NCBI RefSeq assembly: GCF_001547935.1
Contig: NZ_AP014635.1
Span: 1,736,001-1,800,000 of the forward strand
DNA length: 64,000 nucleotides
From: Vibrio tritonius
GTDB taxonomy: Bacteria; Pseudomonadota; Gammaproteobacteria; Enterobacterales; Vibrionaceae
Reading direction: 5' to 3'
In this document: one piece after another, positions 22,015 to 64,000 of the stretch
Numbering within the stretch: the first letter of the stretch is position 1
Layout: every line of letters begins with the position of its first letter
Program-made: the position numbers and the translations under genes
The notes under the pieces: model-generated
What the model saw: the letters and a program-made list of their open reading frames with translations, nothing else
The model's database searches: none
What the model was told of the DNA's origin: nothing

Positions 22015-22029
22015 AGTGTCGAAACGTGA

Positions 22030-22548
22030 TTACGCTTCAACTGGTTTACGCCAGTCATCAGCACCTGATGTACCTGCGTTAACGTGATCCCAAGTGATCT
22101 TACGGTATGTCATAGATACAGTAAGGTTTTGAGTAAAATCAGATTTCGCTGGATCTTGACAGTGTGGCATTTCACATTCGATGTCAACGATAGACGCGTT
22201 TTCCAATTTTGTAGTAAAGAAGTTTTCTTGTTTACCTTCGATTGAAGTACGGTACCATTTCAATTCAACGCTCGACATTTTCTCACCAGCAGCAAGTGCG
22301 TTGTACAGAAGAGGAACAGCTTTGTTCAAAGTTACTGTAAATTTGAAAGGTTTGTGTACACGTTGGCCTGAAGGCTGACCAGATTGAGGGTCAGTTGGTA
22401 CTGTGATGATGTGGTCGAATTGTTGAACCAGCATTTCGTCTTCATGACCTTCAACGTATGAGTCACCAATTGAATCTGAAGTACATGCACCAGCAGTGAT
22501 AAGACCTTGAGTTTGACCTTCAATTGAGATGTAACATGGAGTTGGCAT
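22030..22548 (-). CDS. hcp: Hcp, T6SS tube protein
   Basis: A 172-residue protein that stacks as hexamers to form the inner tube. It starts MPTPCYISIEGQTQGLITAG and carries the typical GHEDEMLVQQFDH and the end YRKITWDHVNAGTSGADDW, as in V. cholerae Hcp. Length matches. It is the first gene of the leftward auxiliary T6SS unit (hcp, vgrG, effector, immunity). A sigma-54-type promoter lies about 60 bases upstream. No tail-sheath or membrane-complex genes are in the window, so the structural T6SS cluster must lie elsewhere. Confidence 0.97.
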   Translation of the reverse strand: MPTPCYISIEGQTQGLITAGACTSDSIGDSYVEGHEDEMLVQQFDHIITVPTDPQSGQPSGQRVHKPFKFTVTLNKAVPLLYNALAAGEKMSSVELKWYRTSIEGKQENFFTTKLENASIVDIECEMPHCQDPAKSDFTQNLTVSMTYRKITWDHVNAGTSGADDWRKPVEA

Positions 22549-45037: not shown

Positions 45038-45072
45038 AAGAAAAAGCAGGAATCACTCTCATGATTCCTGCT
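45038..45072 (-). terminator. Terminator of the NRPS cluster
   Basis: Stem AGCAGGAATCA / TGATTCCTGCT with loop TGAGAG and TTTTTCTT after it on the minus strand, 30 bases past the last NRPS stop. It marks the end of the leftward NRPS unit. Confidence 0.92.
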
Positions 45073-45102: not shown

Positions 45103-48100
45103 TTAGAAATCACCGGTTACCAGACCAACAATGCTTTGATCCAAACCACAACAACTGTGCGGCTCGTTATGACGCGTCACATGATCTAGAGTGCCTTGCC
45201 ACCAAGACCACTCTTCTTCACTTACCGTACTCAGTAACCAATGTTGACAGACATGGTTTGGTATCGTCAAAGCACTTGGCATGCGCTGCTGCGCCGCCTC
45301 AATTCGCAGTAACGCCTCAATATCTTGGGCTGTTGGCCACGCTTTCATTTGGCAAGCTTTGGTCGGTTTGGCAGCAATCAAAGCGGCATCCAGTAGCTCA
45401 ATACGTTGCTGGTGATCCAACGTCAGAATATCCCGCTCCGTTATCCCCAATACCCAACCAAGTTTTGCTAACCGATTGCACCAGTGAAGAATCACCTCAA
45501 CCATGGTGACATCTTGTCCCCTCGTATTGTCGTCACTCTCCGTTGCTGCGACACGATCCAGATAGACTTGAGGTGTCGTATCAACATGCTGAGCGATCGT
45601 CGCGCCTAATTGGGCAGCAACCCAAGCCTGACTGCCGGCTCCCATGACATGCACGGTAGCTTCTGGTTGGATATAGGACTGAATCGCTTGCCAATAATAG
45701 TGCGCCGCCGCCTCGACCGTTGTGTGTGGCACATTTAGGCCATTCAAACCACGTGGGCGTAGTGCCAACACGAGGCAATCTTGTCCCCAATTCGACAAGT
45801 GCGGACGACGATTGAGCAACAGATCTGTGCTATCAAGTAGGTACAGCACCACATTTGTGACATTGTCACCTTGATGAAGTATTTCAACTGCTGACTCAAA
45901 ATGCGCGTGGGTAAACGTGTGACCTTGCTCATATTGTGCTTGGCGTGCCAAGATGCCTTGCGACATCGCTTCTGCCATATAACCAATGTATGGCTCAACG
46001 AACACATGGTAATGATTGGTCTCTTTGATCATGGCAACCGTGATCTCCTGCGTAGGCATGAAGCGGTCCCAACCTAGATAAGCTGCCATTTCAGCGGATT
46101 CTCCCACTGGGCGCTCTTCTGCAATCAATAGATCCATCGCCATCGGCAGAGCTTGATAGTGATAATCGGCCGCTAGAATACCTTCGCGATGCAATAACCA
46201 TTGACGGTAATACTGCTCACTCCAACCGCTTGGCAGCATTCCCATAGCACTTGCTTCTCGGTAGTAGTCATACCAAGAGATAGAAGGATCTTCCGGCGTC
46301 AACTCTTGGTTGAGACTCAAAATATCTGCCGCCAAACCATCAAAGACTTCTTTACTCATCGCCGTCAGTTGCTGCTCATCACTCATTTGTTCGCGCAATT
46401 GATGACGTGCTACCTGAGGTTTTACCGCCGATGTATCAACAATACCAACGTATTCCACTTGCTGATCTTGGCCTAGTAATTGTTGGGAAATTTCCCAAGC
46501 CAACGTGCCACCAAGGGAAATGCCAGTTAAGCGATATGGGCCTTGAGGCTGGACTTCACGCATCAAACGTGCAAAACGCGCTGCAGCCGCTTCAATGGTT
46601 TTAAACGGCGCCTCGTTACGATCCGGTGCCGACAGACCATAAACAGGTATTGCAGGATCAATATAACTTGCCAGTAGTGGCGCATACATCATCTCGCCAC
46701 TGGCTTCAGGCACAATAAACAGCGGCCGTTCATCCTCTTTTGCTGCACGTAGTGCCACCGCCATATCCGCTTGCTCGCCATGACGCGCAATCATATCGGC
46801 AATGTCAGCCAAACGTGATGAGGTAAAGAGCGCCGATAAACTTAATTCATAACCATGCTGACGCGCCTCATTTAAAAATTGCACCGCCAACATCGAATGA
46901 CCACCCAGTTCAAAGAAACTGTCTTGGCGGCCAATCTGCTGCACTCCAAGCAAACGCTGCCAAATCGATGCGATGGTTTGCTCTATCTCTCCCTCAGGAG
47001 GAAGATACGCCTGCTGCGCAAGATCTTGCTGCTGCGGAGCGGGCAAGGCACGGTAATCCACTTTGCCATTCGCCGTTAAAGGCAGAGCATCCAATTTCAC
47101 ATAGGCAACCGGCACCATATATTCTGGTAATCGCGCCGCCAAATAGACTTTCAGTGCTTGAGGCTGCGCTTGCCCAACATAGTACGCCACCAGCGTGGTG
47201 TTTTGCTCACAGTTCACCGTCACAGTTGCTTCACTCACGCCGCTGTGAGTATTGAGGCTAGCGCTAATTTCTCCTAGCTCAATCCGGAAACCGCGAATTT
47301 TCACTTGGCTATCATTGCGCCCCAAATACTCTAACGTGCCATCTTGACGCCAGCGCCCCAAATCACCACTGCGATAAAGCCGCGGAATCACAGCGCCCGG
47401 CTGTTTGCTTATCTCTTGGGTTGTAAACGGATCAGCGATAAAACGCTGCTCGGTCATCTCAGCAAGTTTAAAGTAGCCGCGCGCCACGCCCGTTCCGCCA
47501 ATATACAGCTCTCCAACCACGCCATAAGGCACCAATTGACCGTAGCTGTCTAAAAGATGGATCTGATTACCTTTTATCGGTTGGCCGATATCAATGACGC
47601 TAGCATCACTGATAATGACGCCAGATGTAGCCACCACAGTGGTTTCCGTTGGACCATAGTTATTGACTAATTGGTAAGAGGCATCTGCTGCCGGCACTCG
47701 ATTGAGGCGATCGCCACCAACCAATAAGTAGCGCAGTGTTGGATGGGTTAACTTACGCTGTATAGCCAGTTCAGCAATCGGAGTCGACAAAAAGCCCACT
47801 TCAATCGGGGTATCTTGCCACCATTGCAATAACTGTTCGGGATCTTTTGAGATGGATAAGTTTGGCAGATGCAATTGTGCTCCCACGCACAGTGGTGGCC
47901 AAATTTCCCATACGCTCGCATCAAATCCGACTCCCGCAACTGCAGAAACTGGAGTGTGGCGAGTAACGCCAAACGCCGGATTGTGCCAATCGACCAAATG
48001 CAATAATTGAGCATGTTCAACCATCACGCCTTTCGGTTTCCCGGTCGAGCCTGAGGTATAAATCATATAGGCAAGCTGATTCCCTTTAATGGTGTTGACC

Positions 48101-51100
48101 ACAGGTTCACTGCTTGCCAAACGCCAGTCGGTCTCTTGCATCAGGTTCCAGACCTTATCGGCTTGAGCATGTAAACGGCTGTCAGGTGACATCGCCGCCA
48201 ATACGGGTGCAAAATCAACAATGCCATCAGTGAGAATCAAGGTCGGTTCGCTGTTTTCGACCATATACGCCAAGCGCTCTAAAGGATAGTGAGGATCCAT
48301 AGGAACATAAGCTCCACCCGCTTTTAACACCGCCAACATCGCAATAATGCTATAACGAGTGCGATCAAAGCAGAGCGCCACACGTTGCTCAGCGCCCACG
48401 CCAGCGTGAATAAGCTGATGTGCCAATTGATTGGACGCCTGGTCCAATTCACCATAGCTCATTGCTCCAAGTGTATCGAGCAACGCCCTATCGTCAGGAT
48501 AACGATGAGCATGAGTAGTAAAACGTTGCACCACATTGTCATGTGACTGACACGCCACCACCGAATGACTTCCACCTCGCGCAAGTTTTTGCAACTGCTG
48601 CCATTCAGTGTCAGGCACCACATTCAGCTTGTGAATCGGCTCATTAGCCACTTGCGGATCAACCAGATTCGTCAACGCCGTCACCATCATAGCGCCAACC
48701 CGCTCACTGCCAACCCGCTTTGCAACTTGAACATCAAGTGAGAAACCGCCTAAGCCGTGATCATTAATTGATAACACCATCGGATAGTTGGTTCGCTCTT
48801 CTGCGTACAACAGATCCAGAGATTGTGCTTGAATCTCAGTTTGGCGACTGCCACCATCATAGCGATAATTGATCAGTGCAGTAAAAAGAGGGCTTTGCTT
48901 CGCCACGCTGCTGCACTGTTGGGCAAGAGAGAGCGACGCGTGTTCGTAATCCAACATTTCAGCCAAATGCCCTTGGGTTTCGTCAATGGCACTGGCCACC
49001 GATTGTGTGCTTAAACTCAATCGCAATGGCAAGGTATTAAGAAACATCCCCAATACACGATTAGCGCCATCGCCGGCCGCCATACGACCAAACAGTACCG
49101 TACCAAACACCACATCATCACGACCTGTCGCCGCACGAATCACCAATGCCCATGCAAGATGGAATACCGTGGCAGCGCTTACACCGTGATGTTTGGCTAG
49201 CGCGCGAATCTTATCTGCTAAAACCGCCTCTAATGGTAAGTGGTATTCCGTGGTATCACTGCCATCGCCTTGGACATCCAATAATTGAAATGGCGCACAT
49301 GGCTCATCGATATCCGCAAGGCGACGAGTGAAATAAGCACGTTGCGCTTCAAGATCAACCTGTTGGCGACTTTCGTAAACAAAATCACGAAACGGCAGTG
49401 GTGCCGGTAACAAATCCTCTTTGCCGAGCAAATGGGCTTGAACCTCTTCCATCATCAGCTCTAAGGTGGTGTGGTCAAAGCAAAGGTGGTGCATCATCAA
49501 ACAGAGCAACCAACGTTCATGGGCCGCATCTTCGGTCGCGGCCAGTGCCATCATCGGCGCACGATGCACATTAATGCGTGTTGTTTCAGGAGCAAAATGC
49601 GCTTTTAACGCCTCAACTTTGTCTTCCTCAGCCAATTCAAGCTGCTGGACATGCAATGGCGCTTCACGCCAAACCACTTGGACCGGTTCAGGCAAACCTT
49701 GCCACAAAACGCTGGTACGTAAGATATCGTGTCGATTGATCACCGCTTGCAAAGCGGCGACAAAACGCTGCATTTCTTGCTCTGTGGTAAACGCTTTGAT
49801 GGCTCTTGTGATATAAGGGTCGCCCTCTTGCGCAAGCATATGGTGGAACAAAATCCCTTCTTGCAGTGGCGCTAATGGGTAAATCTCTTGGATGTTACTT
49901 ACCCCACCTGTGGTCTGTGCAACAATCAAATCAATATGCGACTGCTCTAACTCTATGAGCGACAACTCTTGTGGAGTCAATTGGCTCAAGCCAAGGGATA
50001 TGCGGTTGTGGGGAACTCGAGAACGAGATGGAGCCGCCGTTGAAGAGGCACAAAGTGCCTGACTAAGCTTTGCTAACGTAGGATGAGCAAACAAGGTTTT
50101 GATGGTTAATTCAATACCACTCTGACGTAACTGTTCGATAAGCTGCACTGCAAGCAGTGAGTGTCCACCCAGTTCAAAAAAGTTGTCTTGGCGACCAACT
50201 TGTTCCACACCAAGCAGTGTTTGCCAAATGTCAGCAAGCAACCGCTCTTGTTCATTTTGAGGCACTTCATAGGTGCGATGAATATAAGCATCAGCACTTG
50301 GATGAGGTAAAGCGCGATAATCGACTTTGCCGTTTGCCGTTAAAGGCAATTGCTCTAAACAGACAAACGCACTGGGCACCATATAGATGGGTAAGGTAGC
50401 TGCAAGTTGCTCGTGCAGTTCTTCAATCCTAACGGAAGGATTGAGGTCGCTTTGCGCATTCCGCTTTGCCTCTGTGTAATAGGCAACGATGCGTTGATCA
50501 TTTTGCTCTTTGAGAACTTGGACTGCGGCCATCTCCACTCCAGCGCACTGTTGCAGAGCATGAGCAATTTCGCCCAACTCAATACGGTAACCACGAATTT
50601 TCACTTGGCTGTCATTACGACCTTGATAAATCAAGGTGCCATCGTATGCAAACGAAGCAACATCGCCTGTCCGGTACATACGCGCATTCGGTAACGTCGA
50701 AAATGGGTCGCAGACAAATCGCTCGGCGGTCTGTTCTGGCAAGTTAAGGTAGCCACGAGCCACCCCAGCACCACCTATGTAGATTTCCCCCGTTACGCCC
50801 CACGGTACACGCTGTTGCTGTTCATCAAGCAGGTAAATCTGGGTGTTCGCAATCGGTTTGCCGATGTGTAAGGTTTGAGCACCATTCATCTGCCCAGAGG
50901 TGGCCACCACAGTGGTTTCGGTTGGACCATAGTTGTTGACCAAGGTGTAATGGGCATTTTCTGGCACATTGCGATTGAGTTTATCACCGCCCACCAAAAG
51001 ATAACGCAAGCTCTTTGGCGCAATTTGTGCAGCAAACGCTAATTCAGCGATCGGCGTAGGTAAAAAACTCACTTCAACGTCTTGCGCTTGCCACCAAGCC

Positions 51101-53208
51101 AATAAGCGCTGCGGATCCCGAGTTGTGGCAAGATCAGGCAAACATAACCGTGCTCCTGTTGCTAACGGTGGCCACACTTCCCATACCGCCGCATCAAATC
51201 CCATCCCCGCAACGCTCGAAGCAACACTGTGCTCATTGAGCGAGAACGCTTGGTTATGCCAATGGATTAAGTTGGTCAAAGTATGATGCTCAACCATAAC
51301 CCCCTTGGGTTTACCGGTTGAGCCGGAGGTGTAAATCACATAGGCTAAATCTTGAGCTGTAGCTGCACGGTGATCGAGGTTGTGCTCACTCTCTTGGTTC
51401 CATAAAAGCCTATCTTGCGTAAGATGCACTAACGTCACTGAGTGTTCAAAATTGGCTAAAGCGTCCGCAGAAAAATCGAGAATACCATCGGTCAGCAGCA
51501 CTTGAGGTTGGCTGTCTTGCAGCATATATTCAATGCGCTCTTGCGGATAAGCCGGATCAATTGGTACATAAGCGCCACCCGCTTTAAACACCGCTAACAA
51601 TGCCGTAATCCATTGCTCACCTCGGTCGCAACATACCGCGACTTTGCTCTCAGCACTGATACCTAAACGACGTAAATAATGAGCAAGTTTATTGGCTTGA
51701 ACGTTAAGTTTTGCATAAGTGACATTGTCACTCTCGGTACTGACCGCAATCGCATTCGGAGACACTTCAGCCCGATGTTCAAAAAGCGCGTACGCCGATT
51801 GAAACGCGCCAAAGTCAGCTTGCGTCGTATTGCTAATTACCCAATGTTGCTCGTCATCAGCGGTAAGCAAGGGAAATTGACCAACTGGCAAAGATAATTC
51901 TTGTTTAACCACTTGCTGATAGAAATTCATTAAGCGCGCAAAGTGGCCATCCAGTTCAGCATCGCTATACAGAGCACGGTTTGCATCAAGACACAGCTCT
52001 AGTCCCTTATCTTCTCCACGATCACAAATGTTGATCGCCAAATCATCAATGGGTCCAAGCGCTAAGTTATGTGATTGAACCGCATGACCGGCAAACGTCA
52101 TGGTGTAATCAAACGGCAAAATATTAACGTGAGTAAGGCATAACACATCGTCGCCATTCACCAAACCAAGGTCAGCGGACAACGCTTCACCACGATAGGC
52201 CTGATGGCGTACCGCACTCATCACTTTGCCTTTTACTTGATCCACCAACTGAGCCAAGGTACTCAGTGGTGCAAAGTTGAGCCTTAATGGGAGTACATTC
52301 GACATCATACTCGGGCATTGGCGTGCTACTTTATTGCGTCGCCCTGTCATTGGGCATCCTATAACCAATTCTTGTTGACCAGTCATGCGCGCAAGATAAA
52401 GCGCATTTAGCGTGATCAGCAGTTGCGGTAACGGCGTGTGAAGTGTGTGTGCTAGAGACAGTAATTGTTGTTGAACGGAGGTGGGCACGTAAGCCTGACG
52501 ACGCACTATCTCAACACAAGAGGATTGACGAGATGCAAGGCTGATTGGCGCTGGCCTTTGCTTCATTTGCTCACACCAATAATCTTGGTCTTTGCTGTAT
52601 TGCTTGCTTTGTTGATACTGCTGCTCAAGTTCCAACACACTCGCGAGCGAGGTAAAGTCAGTATGTGGAACCGCCTCCCCTTGGGCTAATGCGGTATAAA
52701 TATCAGCGACACGAGTTGAAAAAAGTCGCGCACCAAATCCATCGATGACGAGATGGTGGGCCGAAGAGAAGTACCAATAACGATCTTCACTTAACTTTAT
52801 CACGGCAAATGAACAGAGCGGACCAAACAACGGGTCAAAACGGCGCTCGCTTTCATGCGCGATCCATTCAAGGGCTGCGGCCGCTGGATCGGGCGCTTGA
52901 CTCACATCGACTTGCGGAACCAAACAACTTCTTGGCGCGTACACTTGGTGCACCTCACCGTGCGATCCCATTTCAAAATTAAACTGAAATGCATCGGTTT
53001 CCTGATGGGTTTGAACAATGGCCCGAACCAACAAATCAGAATTAATATGGCCATCAATGTCCATATATTCGATAACTTTGAAGACTTTGGCATTGGCTTC
53101 ATTATTTAATTGCTGAGCAAACCACATGCCTCTTTGAGCGGCGGATAAAGGTAATACAAGGTTCTGCTGTTCACCGGCATAAATTGATGAACGATTCAGA
53201 TCAATCAT
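45103..53208 (-). CDS. NRPS 3: C-A(Leu)-T-C-A(Leu)-T-TE-TE*
   Basis: About 2700 residues; the ATG at 53208 (MIDLNRSSIYAGEQ) is preferred over a GTG at 53232. Order (residues from 53232): condensation with HHLVIDGFG (about 160), adenylation with YTSGSTGKPKG (about 637), carrier FFELGGHSLL (about 1020), second condensation with HHLCFDH (about 1247), second adenylation (about 1730), second carrier GGHSML (about 2109), thioesterase with GISLGG (about 2237), and a second thioesterase-like part with GAGSQA instead of GxSxG (about 2529), also lacking the CIPGxGDN motif of its sisters. Both hand-read adenylation codes are DAWFLGNVVK, the code known for leucine. No epimerase. The first condensation domain is EntF-like. 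A two-residue extender with one live thioesterase. Confidence 0.92.
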   Translation of the reverse strand: MIDLNRSSIYAGEQQNLVLPLSAAQRGMWFAQQLNNEANAKVFKVIEYMDIDGHINSDLLVRAIVQTHQETDAFQFNFEMGSHGEVHQVYAPRSCLVPQVDVSQAPDPAAAALEWIAHESERRFDPLFGPLCSFAVIKLSEDRYWYFSSAHHLVIDGFGARLFSTRVADIYTALAQGEAVPHTDFTSLASVLELEQQYQQSKQYSKDQDYWCEQMKQRPAPISLASRQSSCVEIVRRQAYVPTSVQQQLLSLAHTLHTPLPQLLITLNALYLARMTGQQELVIGCPMTGRRNKVARQCPSMMSNVLPLRLNFAPLSTLAQLVDQVKGKVMSAVRHQAYRGEALSADLGLVNGDDVLCLTHVNILPFDYTMTFAGHAVQSHNLALGPIDDLAINICDRGEDKGLELCLDANRALYSDAELDGHFARLMNFYQQVVKQELSLPVGQFPLLTADDEQHWVISNTTQADFGAFQSAYALFEHRAEVSPNAIAVSTESDNVTYAKLNVQANKLAHYLRRLGISAESKVAVCCDRGEQWITALLAVFKAGGAYVPIDPAYPQERIEYMLQDSQPQVLLTDGILDFSADALANFEHSVTLVHLTQDRLLWNQESEHNLDHRAATAQDLAYVIYTSGSTGKPKGVMVEHHTLTNLIHWHNQAFSLNEHSVASSVAGMGFDAAVWEVWPPLATGARLCLPDLATTRDPQRLLAWWQAQDVEVSFLPTPIAELAFAAQIAPKSLRYLLVGGDKLNRNVPENAHYTLVNNYGPTETTVVATSGQMNGAQTLHIGKPIANTQIYLLDEQQQRVPWGVTGEIYIGGAGVARGYLNLPEQTAERFVCDPFSTLPNARMYRTGDVASFAYDGTLIYQGRNDSQVKIRGYRIELGEIAHALQQCAGVEMAAVQVLKEQNDQRIVAYYTEAKRNAQSDLNPSVRIEELHEQLAATLPIYMVPSAFVCLEQLPLTANGKVDYRALPHPSADAYIHRTYEVPQNEQERLLADIWQTLLGVEQVGRQDNFFELGGHSLLAVQLIEQLRQSGIELTIKTLFAHPTLAKLSQALCASSTAAPSRSRVPHNRISLGLSQLTPQELSLIELEQSHIDLIVAQTTGGVSNIQEIYPLAPLQEGILFHHMLAQEGDPYITRAIKAFTTEQEMQRFVAALQAVINRHDILRTSVLWQGLPEPVQVVWREAPLHVQQLELAEEDKVEALKAHFAPETTRINVHRAPMMALAATEDAAHERWLLCLMMHHLCFDHTTLELMMEEVQAHLLGKEDLLPAPLPFRDFVYESRQQVDLEAQRAYFTRRLADIDEPCAPFQLLDVQGDGSDTTEYHLPLEAVLADKIRALAKHHGVSAATVFHLAWALVIRAATGRDDVVFGTVLFGRMAAGDGANRVLGMFLNTLPLRLSLSTQSVASAIDETQGHLAEMLDYEHASLSLAQQCSSVAKQSPLFTALINYRYDGGSRQTEIQAQSLDLLYAEERTNYPMVLSINDHGLGGFSLDVQVAKRVGSERVGAMMVTALTNLVDPQVANEPIHKLNVVPDTEWQQLQKLARGGSHSVVACQSHDNVVQRFTTHAHRYPDDRALLDTLGAMSYGELDQASNQLAHQLIHAGVGAEQRVALCFDRTRYSIIAMLAVLKAGGAYVPMDPHYPLERLAYMVENSEPTLILTDGIVDFAPVLAAMSPDSRLHAQADKVWNLMQETDWRLASSEPVVNTIKGNQLAYMIYTSGSTGKPKGVMVEHAQLLHLVDWHNPAFGVTRHTPVSAVAGVGFDASVWEIWPPLCVGAQLHLPNLSISKDPEQLLQWWQDTPIEVGFLSTPIAELAIQRKLTHPTLRYLLVGGDRLNRVPAADASYQLVNNYGPTETTVVATSGVIISDASVIDIGQPIKGNQIHLLDSYGQLVPYGVVGELYIGGTGVARGYFKLAEMTEQRFIADPFTTQEISKQPGAVIPRLYRSGDLGRWRQDGTLEYLGRNDSQVKIRGFRIELGEISASLNTHSGVSEATVTVNCEQNTTLVAYYVGQAQPQALKVYLAARLPEYMVPVAYVKLDALPLTANGKVDYRALPAPQQQDLAQQAYLPPEGEIEQTIASIWQRLLGVQQIGRQDSFFELGGHSMLAVQFLNEARQHGYELSLSALFTSSRLADIADMIARHGEQADMAVALRAAKEDERPLFIVPEASGEMMYAPLLASYIDPAIPVYGLSAPDRNEAPFKTIEAAAARFARLMREVQPQGPYRLTGISLGGTLAWEISQQLLGQDQQVEYVGIVDTSAVKPQVARHQLREQMSDEQQLTAMSKEVFDGLAADILSLNQELTPEDPSISWYDYYREASAMGMLPSGWSEQYYRQWLLHREGILAADYHYQALPMAMDLLIAEERPVGESAEMAAYLGWDRFMPTQEITVAMIKETNHYHVFVEPYIGYMAEAMSQGILARQAQYEQGHTFTHAHFESAVEILHQGDNVTNVVLYLLDSTDLLLNRRPHLSNWGQDCLVLALRPRGLNGLNVPHTTVEAAAHYYWQAIQSYIQPEATVHVMGAGSQAWVAAQLGATIAQHVDTTPQVYLDRVAATESDDNTRGQDVTMVEVILHWCNRLAKLGWVLGITERDILTLDHQQRIELLDAALIAAKPTKACQMKAWPTAQDIEALLRIEAAQQRMPSALTIPNHVCQHWLLSTVSEEEWSWWQGTLDHVTRHNEPHSCCGLDQSIVGLVTGDF

Positions 53209-53232
53209 AGATATAAACTCTCTATTACACAC

Positions 53233-53754
53233 ACGTAAATATAGCCCTCTACAAATTTAAAAGGCCGCAAATGAACACAATTTTTAACAAAATAAATACA
53301 AAAATAAAAATAACCCTATAATGGGAATTACAGGGTTAAGTTTTTAAAAATCAACAATAAAGTACATTCGAAAAAATGAATCTAATAATCAAAATACGTT
53401 AATAAGGAACCATATCAGTGAAGTTAACACTCACCACATAAGCAGACTTAACCTTTAAGAAAAGGTATAATACGGTACAATTTAATTGATAGACTACTCC
53501 AATTAGGCACTGATTAATACTTGAACTGATGATTATTATTTAGAATATTTGTTTTTGGGATGAATATCCCACTACAATTTAATATTTCATGAAACATGAA
53601 TATTAGTAAATTATAAAATATCACATCCATTAAAAACCAAGAGCCTAATATAACAATTAGATTCGCACTGTATATACACCAATAGCTAACCTTGAATTAT
53701 CTGCCATTAAAAACATTGATATTCATTTTTTACAAAGTCGATATTTAAAATATA
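53233..53754. other. AT-rich spacer between NRPS genes
   Basis: A 520-base AT-rich gap. It contains the terminator-like hairpin at 53300-53337 and should contain a separate promoter for NRPS 3. The stretch AAATAATAATCATCAG (minus, 53524-53539) is only weakly Fur-like. No gene seen. Confidence 0.5.
53300..53337 (-). terminator. Terminator after NRPS 2
   Basis: Minus strand stem AACCCT / AGGGTT with a 14-base middle, followed by ATTTTTATTTTT. It suggests that NRPS 2 and NRPS 3 are separate transcripts. Confidence 0.6.
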
Positions 53755-56700: not shown

Positions 56701-58554
56701 AATGATGTAGGCGAGATGATTAGCTTCATACTGTTCATGGCTTGGGTTTTCTTCACTGCCAAACATCCATAACACTTCATCATCGGACATGTGCAGCACT
56801 TCAACCGGGCTTTGCTGCTCTTCAAAGGACACCACGCCATCAGAGAGTAAAAACTGCGGCGCACAATCTTGCATAATGTAGTCGATGCGTTCCATTGGAT
56901 AGGCAGGGTCAATCGGCACATACGCGCCGCCCGCCTTCCACACTGCAACCATGGCAATCAGCCAATCCCAACTGCGATCACAACACACAGCCACTTTCAC
57001 TTCAGGGCCTACGCCCCGTTCACGCAAATAGTGCGCCAATTGGTTAGCTCGTCGATTGAGCGCATCGTAAGTGAGCTGCCCTTCTTCAACGGAAAGTGCG
57101 ATGGCGTGGGGCGTTTGCTCAACTTGTTGTTCAAAAAGACGAAACACCGGCTGATGCGGACCAAAATCTTGCACAGTGTCATTCCAGCGCTGCCATTGAG
57201 CTAAGTCTTCGCGCATCATAATCGGGTAGTCGGCTAAACTTGATTGCTGCGATACTTTGGTCACTGCGGTGTAAAAATGCATTAAGCGCTGAAAGTGTCC
57301 ATCCAGAGTCGCATCATCATAAAGCGTGCGATTAGCATCGATGCACAGCTCTAATCCGTGCTCTGCGCCGCGGTCACAGACGTTGATTGACAAGTCATCG
57401 AGAGGCCCCAATGAGACGTTGTTGGCTTGCACAGGCAAACCAGCAAAGGTCATGTCGTATTCAAACGGCAAAATATTAATATGAGTGAGCACTAAGGCGT
57501 CGTCGACCTTAGTTAATCCTAACTCCTGACTAAGCTCTTCCCCACGATAATTTTGGTGACGCACCATACTTAAAACACGCCCCTGAACTTGCTCCACTAA
57601 ATCAGCTAAAGTTCCATTAGGATCAATCGCTAAGCGCAGCGGTAGCACATTCGACATCATTCCTGCATAACGGCGGGCGACTTTGCTACTGCGCCCTGTC
57701 ATTGGACACCCTACCAGTAGATCTTGCTCACCCGTTATGCGATACAAAAACAGCGCAGTCAAGGCGATAAGCAGTTGTGGCAGAGGCGTACCAAGGTCAG
57801 CGGCTAAGCGGCGCAATGCTTGATGTGTTTCTTCAGGCAAGTATGATTGACGGCGAACAATGCCCGTGCACACTGCACGGCGTTCACACAAACTCAGTGG
57901 TGTCGGCATTCCCGCCATCTGATCGAGCCAATATTGACGATCTTTCTGGTAGGCATTACTAGCACGATAACGTTCTTCGCTCTCTAACACTTTGCTGAGC
58001 GAGGTAAAATCACATTCAGGAATAGGCTCATCAGCCATCATGGCACTGTATACCTGTGCTACGCGAGATGAGAGTAATTGAGCGCCAAAACCATCAATAA
58101 TCAAATGATGGGCACAGGCGAAATACCAAAAACAGGTTGGACTTAATTTCAACACCGCGAGAGAAAACAGGCGGTCGTAATCCCAATCCCATGCACTCTG
58201 GCTTTCATTCTCCACCCAATCGCGGGCCATTTGCTGCGGATCGGCGGCCTCACTGCAATCAATGACTGGAATAACGTAGGGCTGATGAACGACCGTCTGC
58301 TGTAACGGCCCCATTTTGCCTGTGTAAAAAATACGTTGGAAAGATTCGGTTTCTTTGAGCGTGTGTTGAAAAGCATTGAGAAGAACCGATACCTCGACTT
58401 CTCCATCAATTTGCAAATATTCGGTGATTTTAAACACTTTGGGATTGGCGTCTAAATTCAATTGCTGAGCAAACCACATTCCCTGTTGAGCAGAAGACAA
58501 TGGCATAGCTAACGTCTCATCACGTAATAGTGACAAACGGTGTTGTTTTTCCAT
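53755..58554 (-). CDS. NRPS 2: C-A(Leu)-T-TE*-TE
   Basis: 1599 residues. Condensation domain (MPLSSAQQGMWFAQQ, HHLIIDGFG near 152), adenylation (YTSGSTGKPKG near 621), carrier (FFELGGHSLLAVQ near 1004). Then come two thioesterase-like domains. In the first, the nucleophile motif reads GRGAAG in place of GxSxG (near 1188) and the catalytic His is Asn (SANAAYITPNQV), so it is probably dead and partly shortened. The second has GHSFGG (near 1416), CIPGGGDNVFAF and a final His (SAVNHMQLL), so it looks active. The hand-read code is DAWFLGNVVK, that is leucine. The condensation domain resembles EntF/first domain of NRPS 3. It follows the exporter gene by 145 bases. Confidence 0.92.
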   Translation of the reverse strand: MEKQHRLSLLRDETLAMPLSSAQQGMWFAQQLNLDANPKVFKITEYLQIDGEVEVSVLLNAFQHTLKETESFQRIFYTGKMGPLQQTVVHQPYVIPVIDCSEAADPQQMARDWVENESQSAWDWDYDRLFSLAVLKLSPTCFWYFACAHHLIIDGFGAQLLSSRVAQVYSAMMADEPIPECDFTSLSKVLESEERYRASNAYQKDRQYWLDQMAGMPTPLSLCERRAVCTGIVRRQSYLPEETHQALRRLAADLGTPLPQLLIALTALFLYRITGEQDLLVGCPMTGRSSKVARRYAGMMSNVLPLRLAIDPNGTLADLVEQVQGRVLSMVRHQNYRGEELSQELGLTKVDDALVLTHINILPFEYDMTFAGLPVQANNVSLGPLDDLSINVCDRGAEHGLELCIDANRTLYDDATLDGHFQRLMHFYTAVTKVSQQSSLADYPIMMREDLAQWQRWNDTVQDFGPHQPVFRLFEQQVEQTPHAIALSVEEGQLTYDALNRRANQLAHYLRERGVGPEVKVAVCCDRSWDWLIAMVAVWKAGGAYVPIDPAYPMERIDYIMQDCAPQFLLSDGVVSFEEQQSPVEVLHMSDDEVLWMFGSEENPSHEQYEANHLAYIIYTSGSTGKPKGVMVEHCTLTNLVHWHNQAFAVTSASVVSSVAGMGFDATVWEVWPALCVGGELCAPKLEVTRDPQQLLNWWVNQPVQLSFLPTPIAELAFAQNVAPATLKTLLVGGDKLTRNAPPEAHYELVNNYGPTETTVVTTSGAMTNADILHIGAPIANSRIYVLDEQHKRVPCGVTGEIYIGGAGVARGYVNLPEQTASRFLPDPFADLPYARMYRTGDLARWCPDGTLEYRGRNDSQVKIRGFRIELGEIAHSVQACQGVELAVVTVEKEAQDQRIIAYFTVNQAIESTPTPNALHQELAQKLPSYMMPSAYVELAQMPLTANGKVDYRALPKPTEGAFIQREYEAPQGEVELRMAQIWQHLLGVNRVGRQDNFFELGGHSLLAVQLIDQLRQHGDELSIKALFTHPTLAQLATQVNNSVLDPTVIEGLDTDQPDVLEPSQHNELTPLQKDILQHRLRAEQAAEPLLALHERYRHPDYLTQLVLPMRENGTQTPLFYFGDDDENQAWLEQLSIALDPRVPVYRLRCGEQVLPQLNTLQKLAEYYVLAIRQCQPQGPYQLIGRGAAGMIAYEVATQLMGVDQEVRYLGLIDCWAATTQAQQLRLSEHSPVSVVPLLNAHTGQAWIEHEYQIHRLPLSLNLFVSRATDSTLGWEHYYAVTELALTIGSANAAYITPNQVAEQLNRDLLDGPVVTGLPHYDPLIPLQTGTRDGDIAICIPGGGDNVFAFIDLVEQMDNAMSVYGLQPRGLWGDLPAHTQVQAAAHCYLNAILPLLVKDQGIGEKTLGRKVHIIGHSFGGWVALELTQLLEAKGVEVVELVMADTQPPQAVQREYTDLEVIAYLAGLMEMHGVSLPMTWEILETLEPAMRIEKVYQQLVSKGVLPANTTPAQFAGIVRVFAANLRTGYQPEQWPAAPIKLLLSSQTSEAQLNSTKLGSEQTLWLKHLPKLEVAHSAVNHMQLLKKNHVHQLMELIHIKY

Positions 58555-58649
58555 ATTTAATAACCCGCATTTTACAAATTATAATGGGCCTTTTTGTATG
58601 AAACAAAAAGACAAACAATCAAAGCCTAAACGTTACTTTCAAGTGATGT

Positions 58650-58673
58650 GGATAACCAAATATTTGGTTATCC
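58650..58673. repeat. 24-bp perfect palindrome before NRPS 2
   Basis: GGATAACCAAATATTTGGTTATCC is self-complementary over its full length and lies between the exporter stop and the NRPS 2 start. On the given strand it is followed by a T-rich stretch, but no rightward gene needs a terminator. It may be an operator or a mRNA stem. Confidence 0.5.
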
Positions 58674-58699
58674 ATTATTGTTATTTTATTTACATTTAT

Positions 58700-60379
58700 T
58701 TACGAAAATATTGGGTCAAAATTAACTTTACTTTCTGACAAACGAATATCCTCAACCAAATGGCCACTTTCGAAGCGCAATAGCTGATCAGCTAATTCAA
58801 AATATTTATCATCGTGTGTAATTACTAATACAAGTTTATTTTGACGTTTTAATTGCGGAATAATTTCAGTATAAAAAAGCTCTCTATATCTTGGGTCTTG
58901 GTCTGCTGCCCATTCGTCATATAAACAAATCGGACAATCTTCAATATACGACATAACTAACGCCAAGCGTTTCTTCTGGCCTTGAGACAAAGCCGTCGAT
59001 GAGAAACACCCGTGATACGTAGAAACCTTATTATCCATCTCTAACTGTTGTAGAAACGGCACAATATCTTCGTCTTTTGCCAATTCACCATTTGGTGCAA
59101 GCACATGATTAAAAAGATGAAAATCTGAAAATATTGCTGAACATAATCCTTGATAACTCTGCAGTTCATCCACCTGACGTATTGGCTTATCATCCAAACT
59201 AATCGTACCGCTGGTGGCTTGATACAAGCCGAGCAGTAATTTAGCGAATGTGGATTTTCCACTGCCATTACCGCCAGTTAAATACACTGCTTCACCCCGT
59301 TTAAGTTGAGTTGTAATAGGCCCGACAGAAAAATGATAATCATCAAGACCGCTATTTTCATACTCAAAACAAAGTTGGCTTATTTTAATTTCATTCCACT
59401 GTTTTATATCAACTGTATTTGCATCATTCTGGATACGTATCGCAAAATTAGATGAATTATTTAAATCCAGATTTTCGATATTGCGATAAGAAGCAGAGAA
59501 ATCACTCATTTGATTTAAAGATCCGACCACACTCTCCAGAGGATTAATCATATATAATATGGTTAATACAAAGCTAACTATCGTATTGAGTGATATTTCT
59601 GACCAATAATTAGCCGCCCCAAAGACAATCACACCAATCACAAAGAACACTAACGTTGATGCCATGCTATTTAACATCGTAAACAGCACTGAGACTTTAA
59701 TACTGCGCTCTTTAATATCGGCGAAATTACGTAGCAAAATACTTTGGTAAACAAATTTGCGCCGTTTGGCATTAATGCTGAGTTCCTTCGCGCCATTAAC
59801 AAGCGTCGTTAAACCATCAAACAGTTCATCTTCATGACCACGTAAGATACGGTAGTGGCGCAAACCGATTCCCAAGAACAGGCGAGCCAGTAACACAATG
59901 GCCGTGATCAGCACAAACACCACACTAAACAGTTGCCAAGAAAGAAAGACCAAATAGCCAAGACAAAGCAACACAGTAACAAAACTGTAGATGAAGCCCG
60001 GCATGATCAGCAGCCCATCAGAAAGCTTAGCTGCATCGGTTTTCATCGCGGCAAGGATACGATGTCCACCAAGGCGTTCTATGGTCGCATATTGAGTACA
60101 GAGTAAGCGTCTAGCTAACTCATCACGAAACTCATACACCACTTGAGCGCTCAATTTCGCCAGCAAGTAACGCGAACCCAACCCAAACAGCAGCACGCCC
60201 AGTACCGCAGAAACAAACAGAGCAAAATCATTCCAGTTGATGTGATGAGATTCACTGAGCGCCGCAAGCTGAGTAGTAATAATCTTCAACATCCCTAGGC
60301 CCGCTAACGCGCCCAAAATGCTGAAAAACGTTGCCGTTAAAATCGGCCATTTAAAACGTAATAAAATGGATTTAAACAT
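58700..60379 (-). CDS. Cyclic-peptide/siderophore ABC exporter (PvdE/SyrD type)
   Basis: A 559-residue fused exporter: six membrane segments in residues 1-300, then the nucleotide-binding domain. Walker A is GGNGSGKST (near 373), the signature LSQGQ, and Walker B CLYDEWAADQDP, the last typical for the PvdE/SyrD cyclic-peptide export family. It should move the NRPS product or its precursor out of the cytosol. The AGGTTAAAG ribosome site supports the start. It lies between NRPS 1 and NRPS 2, read in the same direction, with only 89 bases to the NRPS 1 stop. Confidence 0.93.
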   Translation of the reverse strand: MFKSILLRFKWPILTATFFSILGALAGLGMLKIITTQLAALSESHHINWNDFALFVSAVLGVLLFGLGSRYLLAKLSAQVVYEFRDELARRLLCTQYATIERLGGHRILAAMKTDAAKLSDGLLIMPGFIYSFVTVLLCLGYLVFLSWQLFSVVFVLITAIVLLARLFLGIGLRHYRILRGHEDELFDGLTTLVNGAKELSINAKRRKFVYQSILLRNFADIKERSIKVSVLFTMLNSMASTLVFFVIGVIVFGAANYWSEISLNTIVSFVLTILYMINPLESVVGSLNQMSDFSASYRNIENLDLNNSSNFAIRIQNDANTVDIKQWNEIKISQLCFEYENSGLDDYHFSVGPITTQLKRGEAVYLTGGNGSGKSTFAKLLLGLYQATSGTISLDDKPIRQVDELQSYQGLCSAIFSDFHLFNHVLAPNGELAKDEDIVPFLQQLEMDNKVSTYHGCFSSTALSQGQKKRLALVMSYIEDCPICLYDEWAADQDPRYRELFYTEIIPQLKRQNKLVLVITHDDKYFELADQLLRFESGHLVEDIRLSESKVNFDPIFS

Positions 60380-60435
60380 CTTTAACCTCGGTGTTTATCC
60401 ATAAGGTGCCATAAGGCAACCTCAATGATGGCAAC

Positions 60436-60457
60436 GCTGCCCAGCACGCTGGGCAGC
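60436..60457 (-). repeat. GC-rich hairpin between NRPS 1 and exporter
   Basis: GCTGCCCAGC / GCTGGGCAGC with a two-base centre. It has no T-run, so it may protect or separate message ends rather than stop transcription. Confidence 0.55.
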
Positions 60458-60468
60458 CATAAGCTCGC

Positions 60469-63400
60469 CTATAACGCAATCAGCTGAGCAAGTTGTTGAA
60501 CGTAAGGCGCTTTTAACAAACGCACATGATTAGCAAGCGACTGTTCTATCTGAATAGTTGGGTGCCAAGTGAACCAACCCTGATGTTGTCCTTCGGTCGC
60601 TTCTTGAGAAAGCAGTAGCCCTATAGGTGCTTGGGGCTGACGTTCAGGCCAATAACTGGTACGAATATTGGTTGCAAAAACGCGGAATATCCCCTCTAAA
60701 TGCTCAATTCTTGAGGTCGTAGGCATAACACGCTGAGCGATCAAACTCTGATGTACTCGGCGTAAACGCTCACGAAACGACAGTGACTCCAAAATTTCTG
60801 CCGACAAATGCAGTTCAACGCCCTGCATCTCAAACAGAGAAACCAATTTCATCATCGCCGCCACATCGGTGTACTCTTGCTGCTTCGGATTGGGTACGCG
60901 AGAATCTGCAATGGTCAGCGACGCAACAGCAATGCCCATCGCCTCTAACTGATTGACCAGTTCTAATGCCACCCAGCCACCAAACGAGTGACCCACGATA
61001 TGCAGCGGTTGATCGCTAAGATGTTTTTGTAACGCGTGACAGTAGAATCTAGCGGCGGCTTCCACTGAGGCATGCGGAGCTTCTTTGCCCCACAAACCGC
61101 GCGGTTGCAGACCATAGATACTCACGTCATCGCCTAATTGTTGTGCTAAGTCCATAAAACTAAACACATTATCGCCAGCGCCTGGAATACAGAACACCTG
61201 AGCGCAATCGCCTTTACCGAGTTGCAATTTCACCACCGGATCATAGGTGTGATTCGACTGCGCATCTTTGTGATTGGCACGAGCCTGTATGGCTTGGCTA
61301 ATCGCAGCACCAGTGGTTGCGACATAAGGCTCAGAAATGAGCAATTGGTGTTCTCCAGCTAATGGCATGACGCGAATTGCATCGCTAGGCAGTACCTGAT
61401 CCCACGCCAGATAAGGATCGTGCAATCCTTGCTCTTCAACGGGGCGTTGCTGGGCAACAAATAGGTCGAGAACCACAGGTAAACTTGGTGCCTGATAATC
61501 TGCATGGAGCAAATCTCTTCGATGAATCAGCCAGTTATAATAATATTCTGCATTCCAATCCGCCGGTAAGATACCCATTTTTTGTGCCAGACAGAAATGG
61601 TCCTGCCATCGTTCACTTTCCGTCAGTAGCACACGAATGTCCTCGTCGCAGACTCCTGAATAAGTGCCGTTAACCACTTGATATTCGACAATCTCACGAC
61701 TCATAAAGGCGATTTCTTGCTCAATATCGGCAAAGCGCATGCCTTGGTGATGATCTCGTTCAAACTGCGGCGCTATCGCCCAGCGGTCGATGATGCCCAA
61801 AAATTCAATCTGCTCATCTTGACCAATCAATTGAGCGGCAATTTCGTACGCCATGGTGCCGCCAAATGACCAACCCACTAGGCGATAGGGACCATGGGGC
61901 TGAGCTTGACGAATCGCGCGAACATAATGCTCTGCCACTTTTTGCACGGTTTTTAGCGACGGCTTGCGGCGATCTGGCGCGACCAGACCATAGACAGGGA
62001 TCTGCTCATCAATATGAGCCGTTAGCAGCGGGCCATAGAGGGTTTCACCACTCGCTTCCGGCACGATAAACAGCGGAGTCTCATTGCCAGTATCACGAAA
62101 TGCGATGGTTAAACGATCGCTACCCGCTGGGTTTTGGCTCGCTTGCTCTTGATGAGCCAGTCTCTGTGCTAATTCACTCATCACTGGCGTGCTAAACAAG
62201 GTCGCTAAATCGAGATTTAGCCCGCGCTGTTGCAACTGATTGACCAGTTTTACCGCCAATAAAGAGTGCCCGCCCAGTTCAAAGAAATTGTCGAAACGCC
62301 CCACCTGCGCAATGCCCAATAGCTCTTGCCACACAAGTGCTAGCATCAATTCCATCTCGGTTTGCGCTGCCACAAATTGCTGACGCACAAACGCCTCTTC
62401 CGCTGGCTCTGGCAACGCTTTGCGATCCATTTTGCCGTTTGGCGTCAGTGGAATCGTCTCAATTTGCATCAGTGCCGCTGGCACCATGTACTCTGGCAAA
62501 CGCTCGCCCATCTGCGCTTTAATCGCTTCAATTGAAAGCACTTGCTCAGCAGTAAAGTAACCCACCAGCTGCTTGTTGGCACTGGTTCCACGAGCAATCA
62601 CGACCGCTTCGAGCACATCCGCGCATCCTTTCAAGGCAGACGAAATTTCGCCCAGTTCAACACGGAAGCCGCGGATTTTCACTTGGTCATCGTTACGCCC
62701 TTGATACTCAATGGTGCCATCCGCCAGCCAGCGTCCAACGTCACCGGTTTTGTACATGGTGGCATTAGGATCTGTAACAAACGGGTCACGCACAAAACGC
62801 TCAGCGGTTAAGTCGTCACGGTTCAGGTAGCCACGCGCCACTTGCACGCCGCCGATAAAGATTTCACCTGCTACGCCCAGAGGCGCTGGTTGACCCTGGC
62901 TATCAAGAACATACATTCGCGTATTAGCAACCGATGAACCGATAGAGACTCTATCGCCGACTAAATCCCGCGGACAATGCCATTGGGTTACATCGACTGC
63001 CGCTTCGGTTGGGCCGTAAAGGTTATGCAGCTCAACATGAGGCAGTGTTTGGTAGGTGCGGCGAATGGTTTCAGCGGGAAGCGCTTCACCACTACAGAAC
63101 ATCAAACGCAGGCTTGGACAACGTGATTGTTCCGTGCCTTCCAAGAACATCTGCAGCATCGGTGGTACAAAGTGCAAAATCGACACATGACGACGTTCAA
63201 TCAACTCACGCAGATAGCTTGGGTCTTTGTGACCTTCCGGTTTGGCCATCACTAACGTAGCTCCAACCCACAGCGGTGCGAAGAATTCCCACACCGACAC
63301 ATCAAAGCTAAATGGGGTTTTCTGTAAAATCACGTCATCACGGTTAAAGCCGTAGTCATCCACCATCCAGCTTAAACGGTTCACCACGCCGCGATGCTCG

Positions 63401-64000
63401 TTCATCACGCCTTTGGGTTTACCGGTCGAGCCTGAGGTGTAAATGATGTACGCCAAGTGACGCGATGTAAGTCCCAGCGCGTTAGGGTCGAGGTTCTGCT
63501 GTGACTCATTTGCCCACGGTAATTCACCCGCAAAATTAACCACTTGTACCGATGCTGGAATCGAACCTAGGCGGCTACGCAGTTCATTGGTGGTAATCAG
63601 CACCACCGGTTGGCTATCTTGCACCATGTATTCCAAGCGATCTTCTGGATAACCGGGATCCATCGGTACATACGCGCCACCGGCTTTTAAAATTGCGACT
63701 AACGCCACCACCAATTCGCTGCTGCGCTCAAGTGAAACCGCCACGCGGCTATCGGGACGAACGCCCAGCTTCACCAGCCAGTGAGCCAGTTGGTTAGCGT
63801 GCGCGTTTAGCTCAGCAAAGGTTAACTCGGTTGGCAGTGTAAAACCTTGCTCGCTCTGTACCGCCACTTGGTGCGGCAGACGAGCAACGGTCTCTTCAAT
63901 GCGCCGCTGAATGCAAGTTTCGGTTGGGTAGGCTTTGTCGGTTTGGTTAAACCCTTCTAGCACCCACTCACGTTCTGTCTGCGCCAGCACTTGAATTGAT
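60469..64000 (-). CDS. NRPS 1: ...A(Ser)-T-TE-TE (partial, continues beyond window)
   Basis: The frame is open to the right edge; the visible part (about 1175 residues) begins at the junction before adenylation (QTEREWVLEGFNQTDK). Adenylation core YTSGSTGKPKG is at about 63430, carrier FFELGGHSLLAVK at about 62275, thioesterase 1 with GWSFGG at about 61870 and thioesterase 2 with GHSFGG at about 60985. Each has its His region (GEHQLLISEPYV; LANHVRLLKAPYV). The hand-read code is DVWHFSLVDK, the serine code of EntF. The preceding part probably holds a condensation domain and perhaps further modules. Both thioesterases look live. The A domain and the code resemble enterobactin-type synthetases. 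Confidence 0.93.
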   Translation of the reverse strand, partial: SIQVLAQTEREWVLEGFNQTDKAYPTETCIQRRIEETVARLPHQVAVQSEQGFTLPTELTFAELNAHANQLAHWLVKLGVRPDSRVAVSLERSSELVVALVAILKAGGAYVPMDPGYPEDRLEYMVQDSQPVVLITTNELRSRLGSIPASVQVVNFAGELPWANESQQNLDPNALGLTSRHLAYIIYTSGSTGKPKGVMNEHRGVVNRLSWMVDDYGFNRDDVILQKTPFSFDVSVWEFFAPLWVGATLVMAKPEGHKDPSYLRELIERRHVSILHFVPPMLQMFLEGTEQSRCPSLRLMFCSGEALPAETIRRTYQTLPHVELHNLYGPTEAAVDVTQWHCPRDLVGDRVSIGSSVANTRMYVLDSQGQPAPLGVAGEIFIGGVQVARGYLNRDDLTAERFVRDPFVTDPNATMYKTGDVGRWLADGTIEYQGRNDDQVKIRGFRVELGEISSALKGCADVLEAVVIARGTSANKQLVGYFTAEQVLSIEAIKAQMGERLPEYMVPAALMQIETIPLTPNGKMDRKALPEPAEEAFVRQQFVAAQTEMELMLALVWQELLGIAQVGRFDNFFELGGHSLLAVKLVNQLQQRGLNLDLATLFSTPVMSELAQRLAHQEQASQNPAGSDRLTIAFRDTGNETPLFIVPEASGETLYGPLLTAHIDEQIPVYGLVAPDRRKPSLKTVQKVAEHYVRAIRQAQPHGPYRLVGWSFGGTMAYEIAAQLIGQDEQIEFLGIIDRWAIAPQFERDHHQGMRFADIEQEIAFMSREIVEYQVVNGTYSGVCDEDIRVLLTESERWQDHFCLAQKMGILPADWNAEYYYNWLIHRRDLLHADYQAPSLPVVLDLFVAQQRPVEEQGLHDPYLAWDQVLPSDAIRVMPLAGEHQLLISEPYVATTGAAISQAIQARANHKDAQSNHTYDPVVKLQLGKGDCAQVFCIPGAGDNVFSFMDLAQQLGDDVSIYGLQPRGLWGKEAPHASVEAAARFYCHALQKHLSDQPLHIVGHSFGGWVALELVNQLEAMGIAVASLTIADSRVPNPKQQEYTDVAAMMKLVSLFEMQGVELHLSAEILESLSFRERLRRVHQSLIAQRVMPTTSRIEHLEGIFRVFATNIRTSYWPERQPQAPIGLLLSQEATEGQHQGWFTWHPTIQIEQSLANHVRLLKAPYVQQLAQLIAL

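What the first reader, a model, noticed from the sequence alone, without database searches (positions are those of the whole stretch)
45103..64000. Every synthetase ends in two thioesterases with complementary decay
NRPS 1 has two intact motifs (GWSFGG, GHSFGG). NRPS 2 keeps only the second (GRGAAG, GHSFGG). NRPS 3 keeps only the first (GISLGG, GAGSQA). Tandem thioesterases are known at the end of some lines, but three in one cluster, each with a carrier before them, is odd. It suggests three lines that offload separately, or duplicated termini after fusion, perhaps with dead domains acting as docking or gating parts.
Basis: partly seen in the sequence, partly recalled or inferred. Interest (0 to 1): 0.85.

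Follow-up and report, generated by a model that had tools for sequence, protein, structure and literature searches.

The report
Three lipopeptide lines, reciprocal dead thioesterases
A Vibrio gene cluster appears to hold three separately started lipopeptide assembly lines, each ending in a pair of release domains; one pair is whole, one has lost its first member and one its second, which offers a natural test of what each release domain does.

Summary
C (NRPS1) has two complete Ser-Asp-His triads. D (NRPS2) has lost TE1: Ser to Gly, His gone, lid mostly deleted. E (NRPS3) has lost TE2. Outside the window lie two more synthetases, A and B, without TEs. The first condensation domains of A, D and E are starter (lipoinitiation) type, so the cluster most likely holds three separately primed lines: A-B-C (nine modules), D (acyl-Leu) and E (acyl-Leu-Leu), beside one exporter. 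E-like synthetases stand alone in other vibrios with both TEs intact. "Complementary" decay is not shown to be functional: E's TE2 most simply died twice, once in a genome where no D was found, and two single losses fall on opposite sides half the time. D looks like a chimera of an E-like start and a C-type end. Dead domains diverge faster than their live partners, but dN/dS after inactivation is 0.11 (D TE1) and 0.18 (E TE2), and AlphaFold models them as folded. Best reading: D releases through TE2 alone, E through TE1 alone, and the dead domains are kept as folded non-catalytic parts. A new variant of a known kind; products untested.

The parts
60469..64000 (-). Synthetase C (NRPS1), C-terminal part; full protein 3,790 aa, three C-A-T modules then TE1-TE2; runs on outside the window (L002:469-11841)
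61282..62097 (-). C TE1, triad S-D-H intact (GWSFGG 61858-61875; Asp in IIDRWA 61777-61794; His in GEHQLL 61339-61356)
60472..61239 (-). C TE2, triad S-D-H intact (GHSFGG 60976-60993; Asp in IADSRV 60895-60912; His in NHVRLL 60514-60531)
58700..60379 (-). ABC exporter (ABC_membrane + ABC_tran); a relative lies next to the C-type tandem-TE synthetase in 8 of 8 Vibrio loci read
53755..58554 (-). Synthetase D (NRPS2), 1,599 aa: Cs-A(Leu)-T-TE1(dead)-TE2
57235..58506 (-). D starter-type condensation domain (HHLIIDG)
55231..55371 (-). D-specific insert between T and TE1, predicted long helix, present in the other D proteins aligned
54580..55233 (-). D TE1, dead: GRGAAG at 54985-55002 (Ser to Gly), catalytic His lost, most of the lid deleted; Asp kept
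53758..54567 (-). D TE2, triad S-D-H intact (GHSFGG 54295-54312; Asp in MADTQP 54214-54231; His in NHMQLL 53806-53823)
53311..53338 (-). Terminator-like hairpin with T tail in the 522-bp gap between D and E; consensus match only, and such sites are no commoner here than in shuffles (15 against a mean of 16.9)
45103..53232 (-). Synthetase E (NRPS3), 2,709 aa (2,701 if the ATG at 53208 is used): Cs-A(Leu)-T-C/E-A(Leu)-T-TE1-TE2(dead)
51883..53154 (-). E starter-type condensation domain (HHLVIDG)
48592..49890 (-). E second condensation domain, dual C/E-like (PLAPLQEGILFHH, HHLCFDH)
   Evidence: dual type by motif, recalled
45898..46740 (-). E TE1, triad S-D-H intact (GISLGG 46507-46524; Asp in IVDTSA 46426-46443; His in TNHYHV 46003-46020)
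45106..45870 (-). E TE2, dead: GAGSQA at 45625-45642; nucleophile and Asp positions not S/D
45045..45072 (-). Terminator-like hairpin with T tail just after E; consensus match only

Best explanation
One cluster houses three separately primed lipopeptide lines beside a single ABC exporter. Line 1 (A-B-C) makes an acylated nonapeptide released through an intact TE1-TE2 pair. Line 2 (D, one module) loads Leu, acylates it at its starter condensation domain and, with TE1 dead, releases acyl-Leu through TE2 by hydrolysis. Line 3 (E, two modules) makes acyl-Leu-Leu and releases it through TE1 alone. Shown by sequence: domain order, starter-type first C domains, specificity codes, triads, phylogeny, purifying selection. 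Inferred: that the lines run independently, the chemistry of each TE, the products, shared export, and that the dead TEs are kept as folded structural or gating parts.
For: Starter domains: the first C of A, D and E best matches RzmA-Cs among solved structures (254.7, 233.4, 229.7 bits, against 161.1, 156.7, 170.4 for EntF), whereas the first C of B, as control, scores 390 against Txo2 and 62.7 against RzmA-Cs. They form one clade of support 100, apart from the other C domains of the cluster. The 7C1H-7C1U entries are RzmA-Cs (passages). Separate lines: six Vibrio genomes carry an E-like 2,685-aa frame, over 300 kb from the other tandem-TE synthetase in five of them and on another contig in the sixth; of the five such neighbourhoods read (G186, G129, G241, L026, L027) none has the exporter next to the synthetase (L026 has a weak ABC match, 30.7 bits, about 9 kb away), and all five have both triads intact. 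Code DAWFLGNVVK in D and in both E modules (assignment to Leu recalled). Selection: G000 versus G179, whose D and E carry the same dead motifs, dN/dS 0.106 (95% 0.036-0.179) for D TE1 and 0.180 (0.108-0.268) for E TE2, against 0.051 (0.020-0.093) and 0.048 (0.026-0.076) for the live partners. AlphaFold: mean pLDDT 82.4 (D) and 80.6 (E), pTM 0.87 both, with alternating strands and helices of a hydrolase in the dead halves.
Against: No product, expression or activity data exist here. In lysobactin TE1 makes the product and TE2 is described as editing or as release, so TE2 alone may not release D's product. The dead domains diverge faster in protein identity (D TE1 52% versus TE2 76% to P0008; E TE2 27% versus TE1 73% to V. 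nitrifigilis), and V. nitrifigilis E ends about 40 residues early, so E TE2 may simply be decaying slowly. The dN/dS intervals of D's dead and live TE overlap, and the live C TE1 has 0.116 (0.063-0.190), no lower than the dead D TE1; low dN/dS can reflect folding constraint only. dS is near saturation for D's TEs (1.9 and 2.6). No acyl donor was identified. D and E could still exchange chains through contacts not visible in sequence.
Confidence: 0.62

Rival explanations
1. Plain relaxed decay: tandem TEs came with the termini, the small products need only one, and the unused one is being lost without any remaining role beyond not misfolding.
For: Dead domains diverge faster than live ones; E TE2 is shortened at the C-terminus in V. 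nitrifigilis; the nucleophile position differs among E proteins (G, N, H); the live TE2 of gazogenes-type E already changes faster than its TE1 (90 versus 81% and 82 versus 68% identity, TE1 versus TE2).
Against: dN/dS of 0.11 and 0.18 between two genomes that share the dead state is far below 1; no stop or frameshift in the domains of G000, G179 or G162 apart from the early end of E in G162; D TE1 keeps its Asp in all four D proteins. Folding constraint alone could produce part of this.
Confidence: 0.3
2. Complementation in trans: D's live TE2 serves E's carriers and E's live TE1 serves D, so the two decays are linked and D and E act as one unit.
For: D and E are neighbours with opposite losses in the three genomes found to have both; D's and E's first modules are sisters.
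Against: E-like in G080 has a dead TE2 and no D match was found in that genome at 1e-40; the TE1 tree puts live gazogenes-type E between the two dead groups, implying two losses. Two single losses are opposite half the time by chance. The intact C pair could serve either as well.
Confidence: 0.1
3. D and E extend or branch the A-B-C peptide, giving one twelve-residue product, with mid-line TEs used for transfer rather than release.
For: All genes lie on one strand around one exporter.
Against: Starter-type C domains take acyl-CoA donors in the characterised case RzmA; G256 (V. xiamenensis) and gazogenes-type G186 have the C-type synthetase plus exporter without D or E next to them; E-like genes stand alone elsewhere.
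Confidence: 0.05

Closest known systems
Pseudomonas cyclic lipopeptide synthetases with tandem TE (arthrofactin, syringopeptin, xantholysin)
   Same: Starter C domain at the beginning, dual C/E domains, TE1-TE2 at the end (passages); C TE-TE is 31-37% identical to Pseudomonas tandem TEs including SypC- and ArfC-named proteins
   Different: There, one tandem terminus per line; here three tandem termini lie in one cluster and two of them have lost one member
Lysobactin and teixobactin synthetases with tandem TE
   Same: TE1-TE2 end; task division proposed for lysobactin (passages)
   Different: Roles reported for both TEs there; here natural TE1-only and TE2-only forms exist
SwrW, C-A-T-TE serrawettin W1 synthetase
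   Same: One C-A-T module ending in TE, lipid-containing product (passages)
   Different: One TE, Ser product; D has a Leu code and two TEs, the first dead. Sequences not compared
Clusters with two lines (laxaphycins/scytocyclamides; surugamides)
   Same: Two peptide lines in one gene cluster (laxaphycins: abstract; surugamides: a reference title seen)
   Different: Laxaphycin lines share a PKS start; here each line has its own starter C domain, and TEs are tandem
E-like dimodular synthetases of the V. gazogenes group (P0079, P0013)
   Same: Same C-A-T-C-A-T-TE-TE order, TE1 clade 100/100 with E
   Different: Both triads intact; gene stands alone

Membership tests
Tandem-TE lipopeptide synthetase | Two TE domains in line after the last carrier | tested here: met
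   C, D and E
Tandem-TE lipopeptide synthetase | Both TE catalytic triads complete | tested here: not met
   Met in C, not in D (TE1) or E (TE2). D and E are filed as variants, not as typical members
Lipid-primed (starter C) synthetase | First C domain of starter type with HHxxxDG | tested here: met
   A, D, E, control 53, tree 55; acyl transfer itself untested
Separate assembly line | Own start, own carrier, own release domain with complete triad | tested here: met
   By sequence only
Separate assembly line | Own product | not testable with these tools
   no chemistry available
Single-module aminolipid synthetase (SwrW-like), for D | One lipid-primed C-A-T module with TE | tested here: met
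   direct comparison with SwrW sequence not made
Single-module aminolipid synthetase (SwrW-like), for D | Ser-activating A domain | tested here: not met
   D code DAWFLGNVVK (Leu, recalled); D works like SwrW perhaps, but is not filed as one
Pseudothioesterase (dead domain kept for another role) | Catalytic residues lost, fold kept, purifying selection after loss | tested here: met
   fold by prediction only
Pseudothioesterase (dead domain kept for another role) | A demonstrated non-catalytic role | not testable with these tools
   needs domain removal experiments

The most novel reading that the evidence does not exclude
The dead thioesterases are true pseudo-enzymes: D TE1, with its lid removed and a new helix placed before it, and E TE2 act as gates or carrier-docking platforms that steer the chain to the one live partner, so nature has split the TE1 and TE2 jobs between neighbouring lines that may make co-exported, cooperating lipids.
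Probability: 0.22. Interest if true: 0.75.

Novelty: new variant of a known kind. Interest (0 to 1): 0.52.

Why it matters
A review states that the role of each TE in a tandem is not clearly established (PMC8949500 section 12). This cluster supplies related natural TE1+TE2, TE1-only and TE2-only termini side by side, with relatives of E in which both TEs are still complete, so the division of labour can be tested without designed mutants. It also suggests three lipopeptides of very different size from one cluster beside one exporter.

Tried and rejected
Fossil C domain: D's insert (LTPLQKDIL...) resembles the start of a dual C domain, but 24, 56, 32 and 101 of 200 shuffles reach the score against E, C, A and B; rejected.

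Siderophore (EntF/DhbF) reading: first suggested by the EntF-like look of D's and E's first C domain; rejected because RzmA-Cs scores clearly higher than EntF and D and E have a Leu, not a Ser, code. EntF-like single-TE synthetases lie elsewhere in the genome.

The first regex reading of A-domain codes missed some domains and gave wrong letters at one position; replaced by an alignment.

Rarity outside Vibrio: one even draw of 369 genomes of the class gave a tandem match at 1e-40 only in the window's own genome. This does not mean that tandem TEs are rare: Pseudomonas proteins with tandem TEs are many. The 80-relative search with D's tandem end found weak single-TE matches in 9 genomes other than G000 was not a tandem survey. 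The structure comparison of the D model was filled by its live TE2 half, so the dead half was not tested there; its fold rests on AlphaFold confidence and strand order alone.

Position of D TE1 and E TE2 in the TE trees: long branches, not used. D TE2 as exact sister of C TE2 is weakly supported (69.6/78); only the wider group with V. xiamenensis is firm (99.8/99).

Literature: the listings (open-licence library only) showed, by title and abstract start, no paper on this cluster or on tandem TEs with one dead member; one search returned nothing. I saw passages of PMC3039948, PMC11735501, PMC8949500 (and its section 12 whole), PMC7804268, PMC7767323, PMC8788793 and PMC3656897, and the outline with abstract of PMC7524897.

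Full report
What is there. The window is the left part of a five-synthetase cluster on one strand of a 3.4-Mb contig of a two-contig, 5.2-Mb genome. The genus Vibrio is inferred: the closest named proteins and the 'same genus' genomes with matches are Vibrio. In order of transcription: A (4,330 aa, four C-A-T modules), B (2,179 aa, two modules), C (3,790 aa, three modules plus TE1-TE2), an ABC exporter, D (1,599 aa, one module plus TE1-TE2) and E (2,709 aa, two modules plus TE1-TE2). B and C overlap by 8 bases and A and B lie 35 bases apart, while 522 bases with a terminator-like hairpin separate D and E; the hairpin scan finds no more such sites than shuffles do (15 against 16.9). A phosphopantetheinyl transferase gene lies upstream of A.

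The six motifs. Aligned with tandem TEs of Vibrio, enteric bacteria and Pseudomonas, C has both triads. D TE1 has Gly for Ser in all four D proteins found (GRGAAG in three, GHGICG in one), keeps the Asp, lacks the His and lacks most of the lid. E TE2 has Gly, Asn or His at the nucleophile position in its five proteins, and its Asp and His positions also vary. E TE1 and D TE2 are complete. Of 207 C-termini (205 proteins listed, where one search listed 120 of 193, plus D and E of the window), 187 were tandem and 20 single; 168 of the 187 have both triads. Of the 19 that do not, 11 are D (4), E (5) or V. aerogenes-type E (2); the others are P0034 (Cys for Ser in TE1), P0051 and P0058 (Ser lost in TE1), P0060, P0062 and P0063 (His of TE2 changed or unaligned), P0095 and P0100 (TE2 motif unaligned). 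The genome copies agree: G179 and G162 have the same pattern as G000 in C, D and E.

Three starts. The first C domains of A, D and E match RzmA-Cs, the solved lipoinitiation domain (passages), better than EntF or elongation domains, while B's first C domain does the opposite. In a tree of the C domains they form one group with support 100. The A-domain codes read by alignment are DLFNNALTYK, DFWNIGMVHK, DVWHFSLVDK and DAWFLGNVVK in A; DFWNIGMVHK and DAMWMGGTFK in B; DAWFLGNVVK, DVWHFSLVDK and DVWHFSLVDK in C; DAWFLGNVVK in D and twice in E (the final K is assumed). By recalled code tables this gives about Ala-Thr-Ser-Leu-Thr-Val-Leu-Ser-Ser for line 1, Leu for D and Leu-Leu for E. So D and E have no side-chain nucleophile for a lactone of their own, unless the acyl chain is hydroxylated.

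Relatives. Of 227 Vibrio genomes, 12 have a tandem match at 1e-40. Three (G000, G179, G162) have C, D and E matches within 20 kb; G162's contig length equals that of the V. nitrifigilis proteins P0078 and P0102. G256 (contig of the same length as V. xiamenensis) has one match, C type with the exporter, at the end of a contig. Eight have two matches; in six of these one match is an E-like 2,685-aa frame, over 300 kb from the other in five and on another contig in the sixth. The other two are G080 (56 kb apart) and G184 (1.2 Mb apart, the second with a single TE). A relative of the exporter lies next to the C-type synthetase in 8 of 8 Vibrio loci read (G000, G179, G162, G256, G080, G186, G184, V. 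ruber L024), but next to none of the five gazogenes-group E-like genes read, nor the E-like gene of G080. Outside Vibrio the Lonsdalea tandem-TE synthetases have no exporter match directly next to them. In an even draw of 369 genomes of the class only G000 matched.

History. The TE1 tree joins E with gazogenes-type E (both TEs complete) at 100/100, with the V. aerogenes type (TE2 dead) outside at 99.2/100, so TE2 was most simply lost twice. D TE2 groups with C TE2 and V. xiamenensis at 99.8/99, its exact place being weak (69.6/78); D TE1 and E TE2 are long branches of no use. D's first module is sister to E's (C-domain tree support 100; Cs 54%, A domains 66% identical). D therefore looks like a chimera of an E-like start and a C-type end. 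Because G080 has a dead E TE2 and no D match, the decay of E does not need D's TE2.

Selection. In the pair G000-G179, whose D and E are dead with the same motifs, dN/dS is 0.106 (0.036-0.179) for dead D TE1 and 0.180 (0.108-0.268) for dead E TE2. Live D TE2 is at 0.051 (0.020-0.093), live E TE1 at 0.048 (0.026-0.076), D's C+A at 0.051 and E's two modules at 0.086. The ratio is thus 2 to 4 times higher in the dead domains (dN alone 1.5 times in D, 3.7 times in E), but the two intervals in D overlap, and the live C TE1 is at 0.116 (0.063-0.190), so only E TE2 stands out clearly. For D's TEs dS is 1.9-2.6, so those values are rough; against the dS of D's own C and A domains (0.81) the dead TE1 would give about 0.24. 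Over longer distances the contrast is plain in protein identity: D TE1 52% versus TE2 76%, E TE2 27% versus TE1 73%, while in C both are 81%.

Fold. AlphaFold models of the D and E tandem ends have mean pLDDT 82.4 and 80.6 and pTM 0.87. In D the dead TE1 keeps its strands and helices, the place of the deleted lid is a low-confidence loop (residues 188-205), and the D-specific insert is a 27-residue helix before the domain. E's dead TE2 is modelled with the usual strand order. The structure searches report thioesterases; for the D model the rows cover mainly its live half, so they do not test the dead one.

Meaning. For xantholysin and lysobactin TE1 is taken as product-forming and TE2 as editing (PMC3656897 passages); in teixobactin both are said to cyclise (PMC11735501 passages); a review calls the roles unsettled (PMC8949500 section 12). 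E (TE1 only) fits a short line that needs no editing. D (TE2 only) is the odd one: release of acyl-Leu by a TE2-type hydrolase. Whether the dead domains gate the chain, hold the fold or only decay slowly cannot be told from sequence. The word complementary should be dropped as a functional claim: two single losses fall on opposite sides half the time.

Noticed in passing
L058-L060 (G162:C1:1660001-1720000), joined positions 9169-22121: The A synthetase of the V. nitrifigilis-like genome is split into three frames, by real breaks or assembly errors.
   Followed up: no
window 55231-55371: D has a conserved insert predicted as a long helix between its carrier and dead TE1, absent from C and E.
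   Followed up: partly
L005:222-19934 and L006:192-9783 (second contig): Two further NRPS loci with single TEs, perhaps siderophore type, and a lone thioesterase frame at G000:C2:247836-248504.
   Followed up: no
L025:3572-11617: Pectobacterium betavasculorum has a dimodular C-A-T-C-A-T-TE-TE synthetase with both triads; a 2,133-aa frame 2 kb away shows only a TE2-like match.
   Followed up: no
window 41836-44198: Beside E lie an NMT1-like binding protein and a GGDEF protein; frames of similar size and order follow E in G179 and G162 (not annotated).
   Followed up: no
P0051, P0058 (protein ids): Two database proteins of other lineages also lack the TE1 serine while keeping the TE2 triad, so TE1 loss may have occurred elsewhere.
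   Followed up: no
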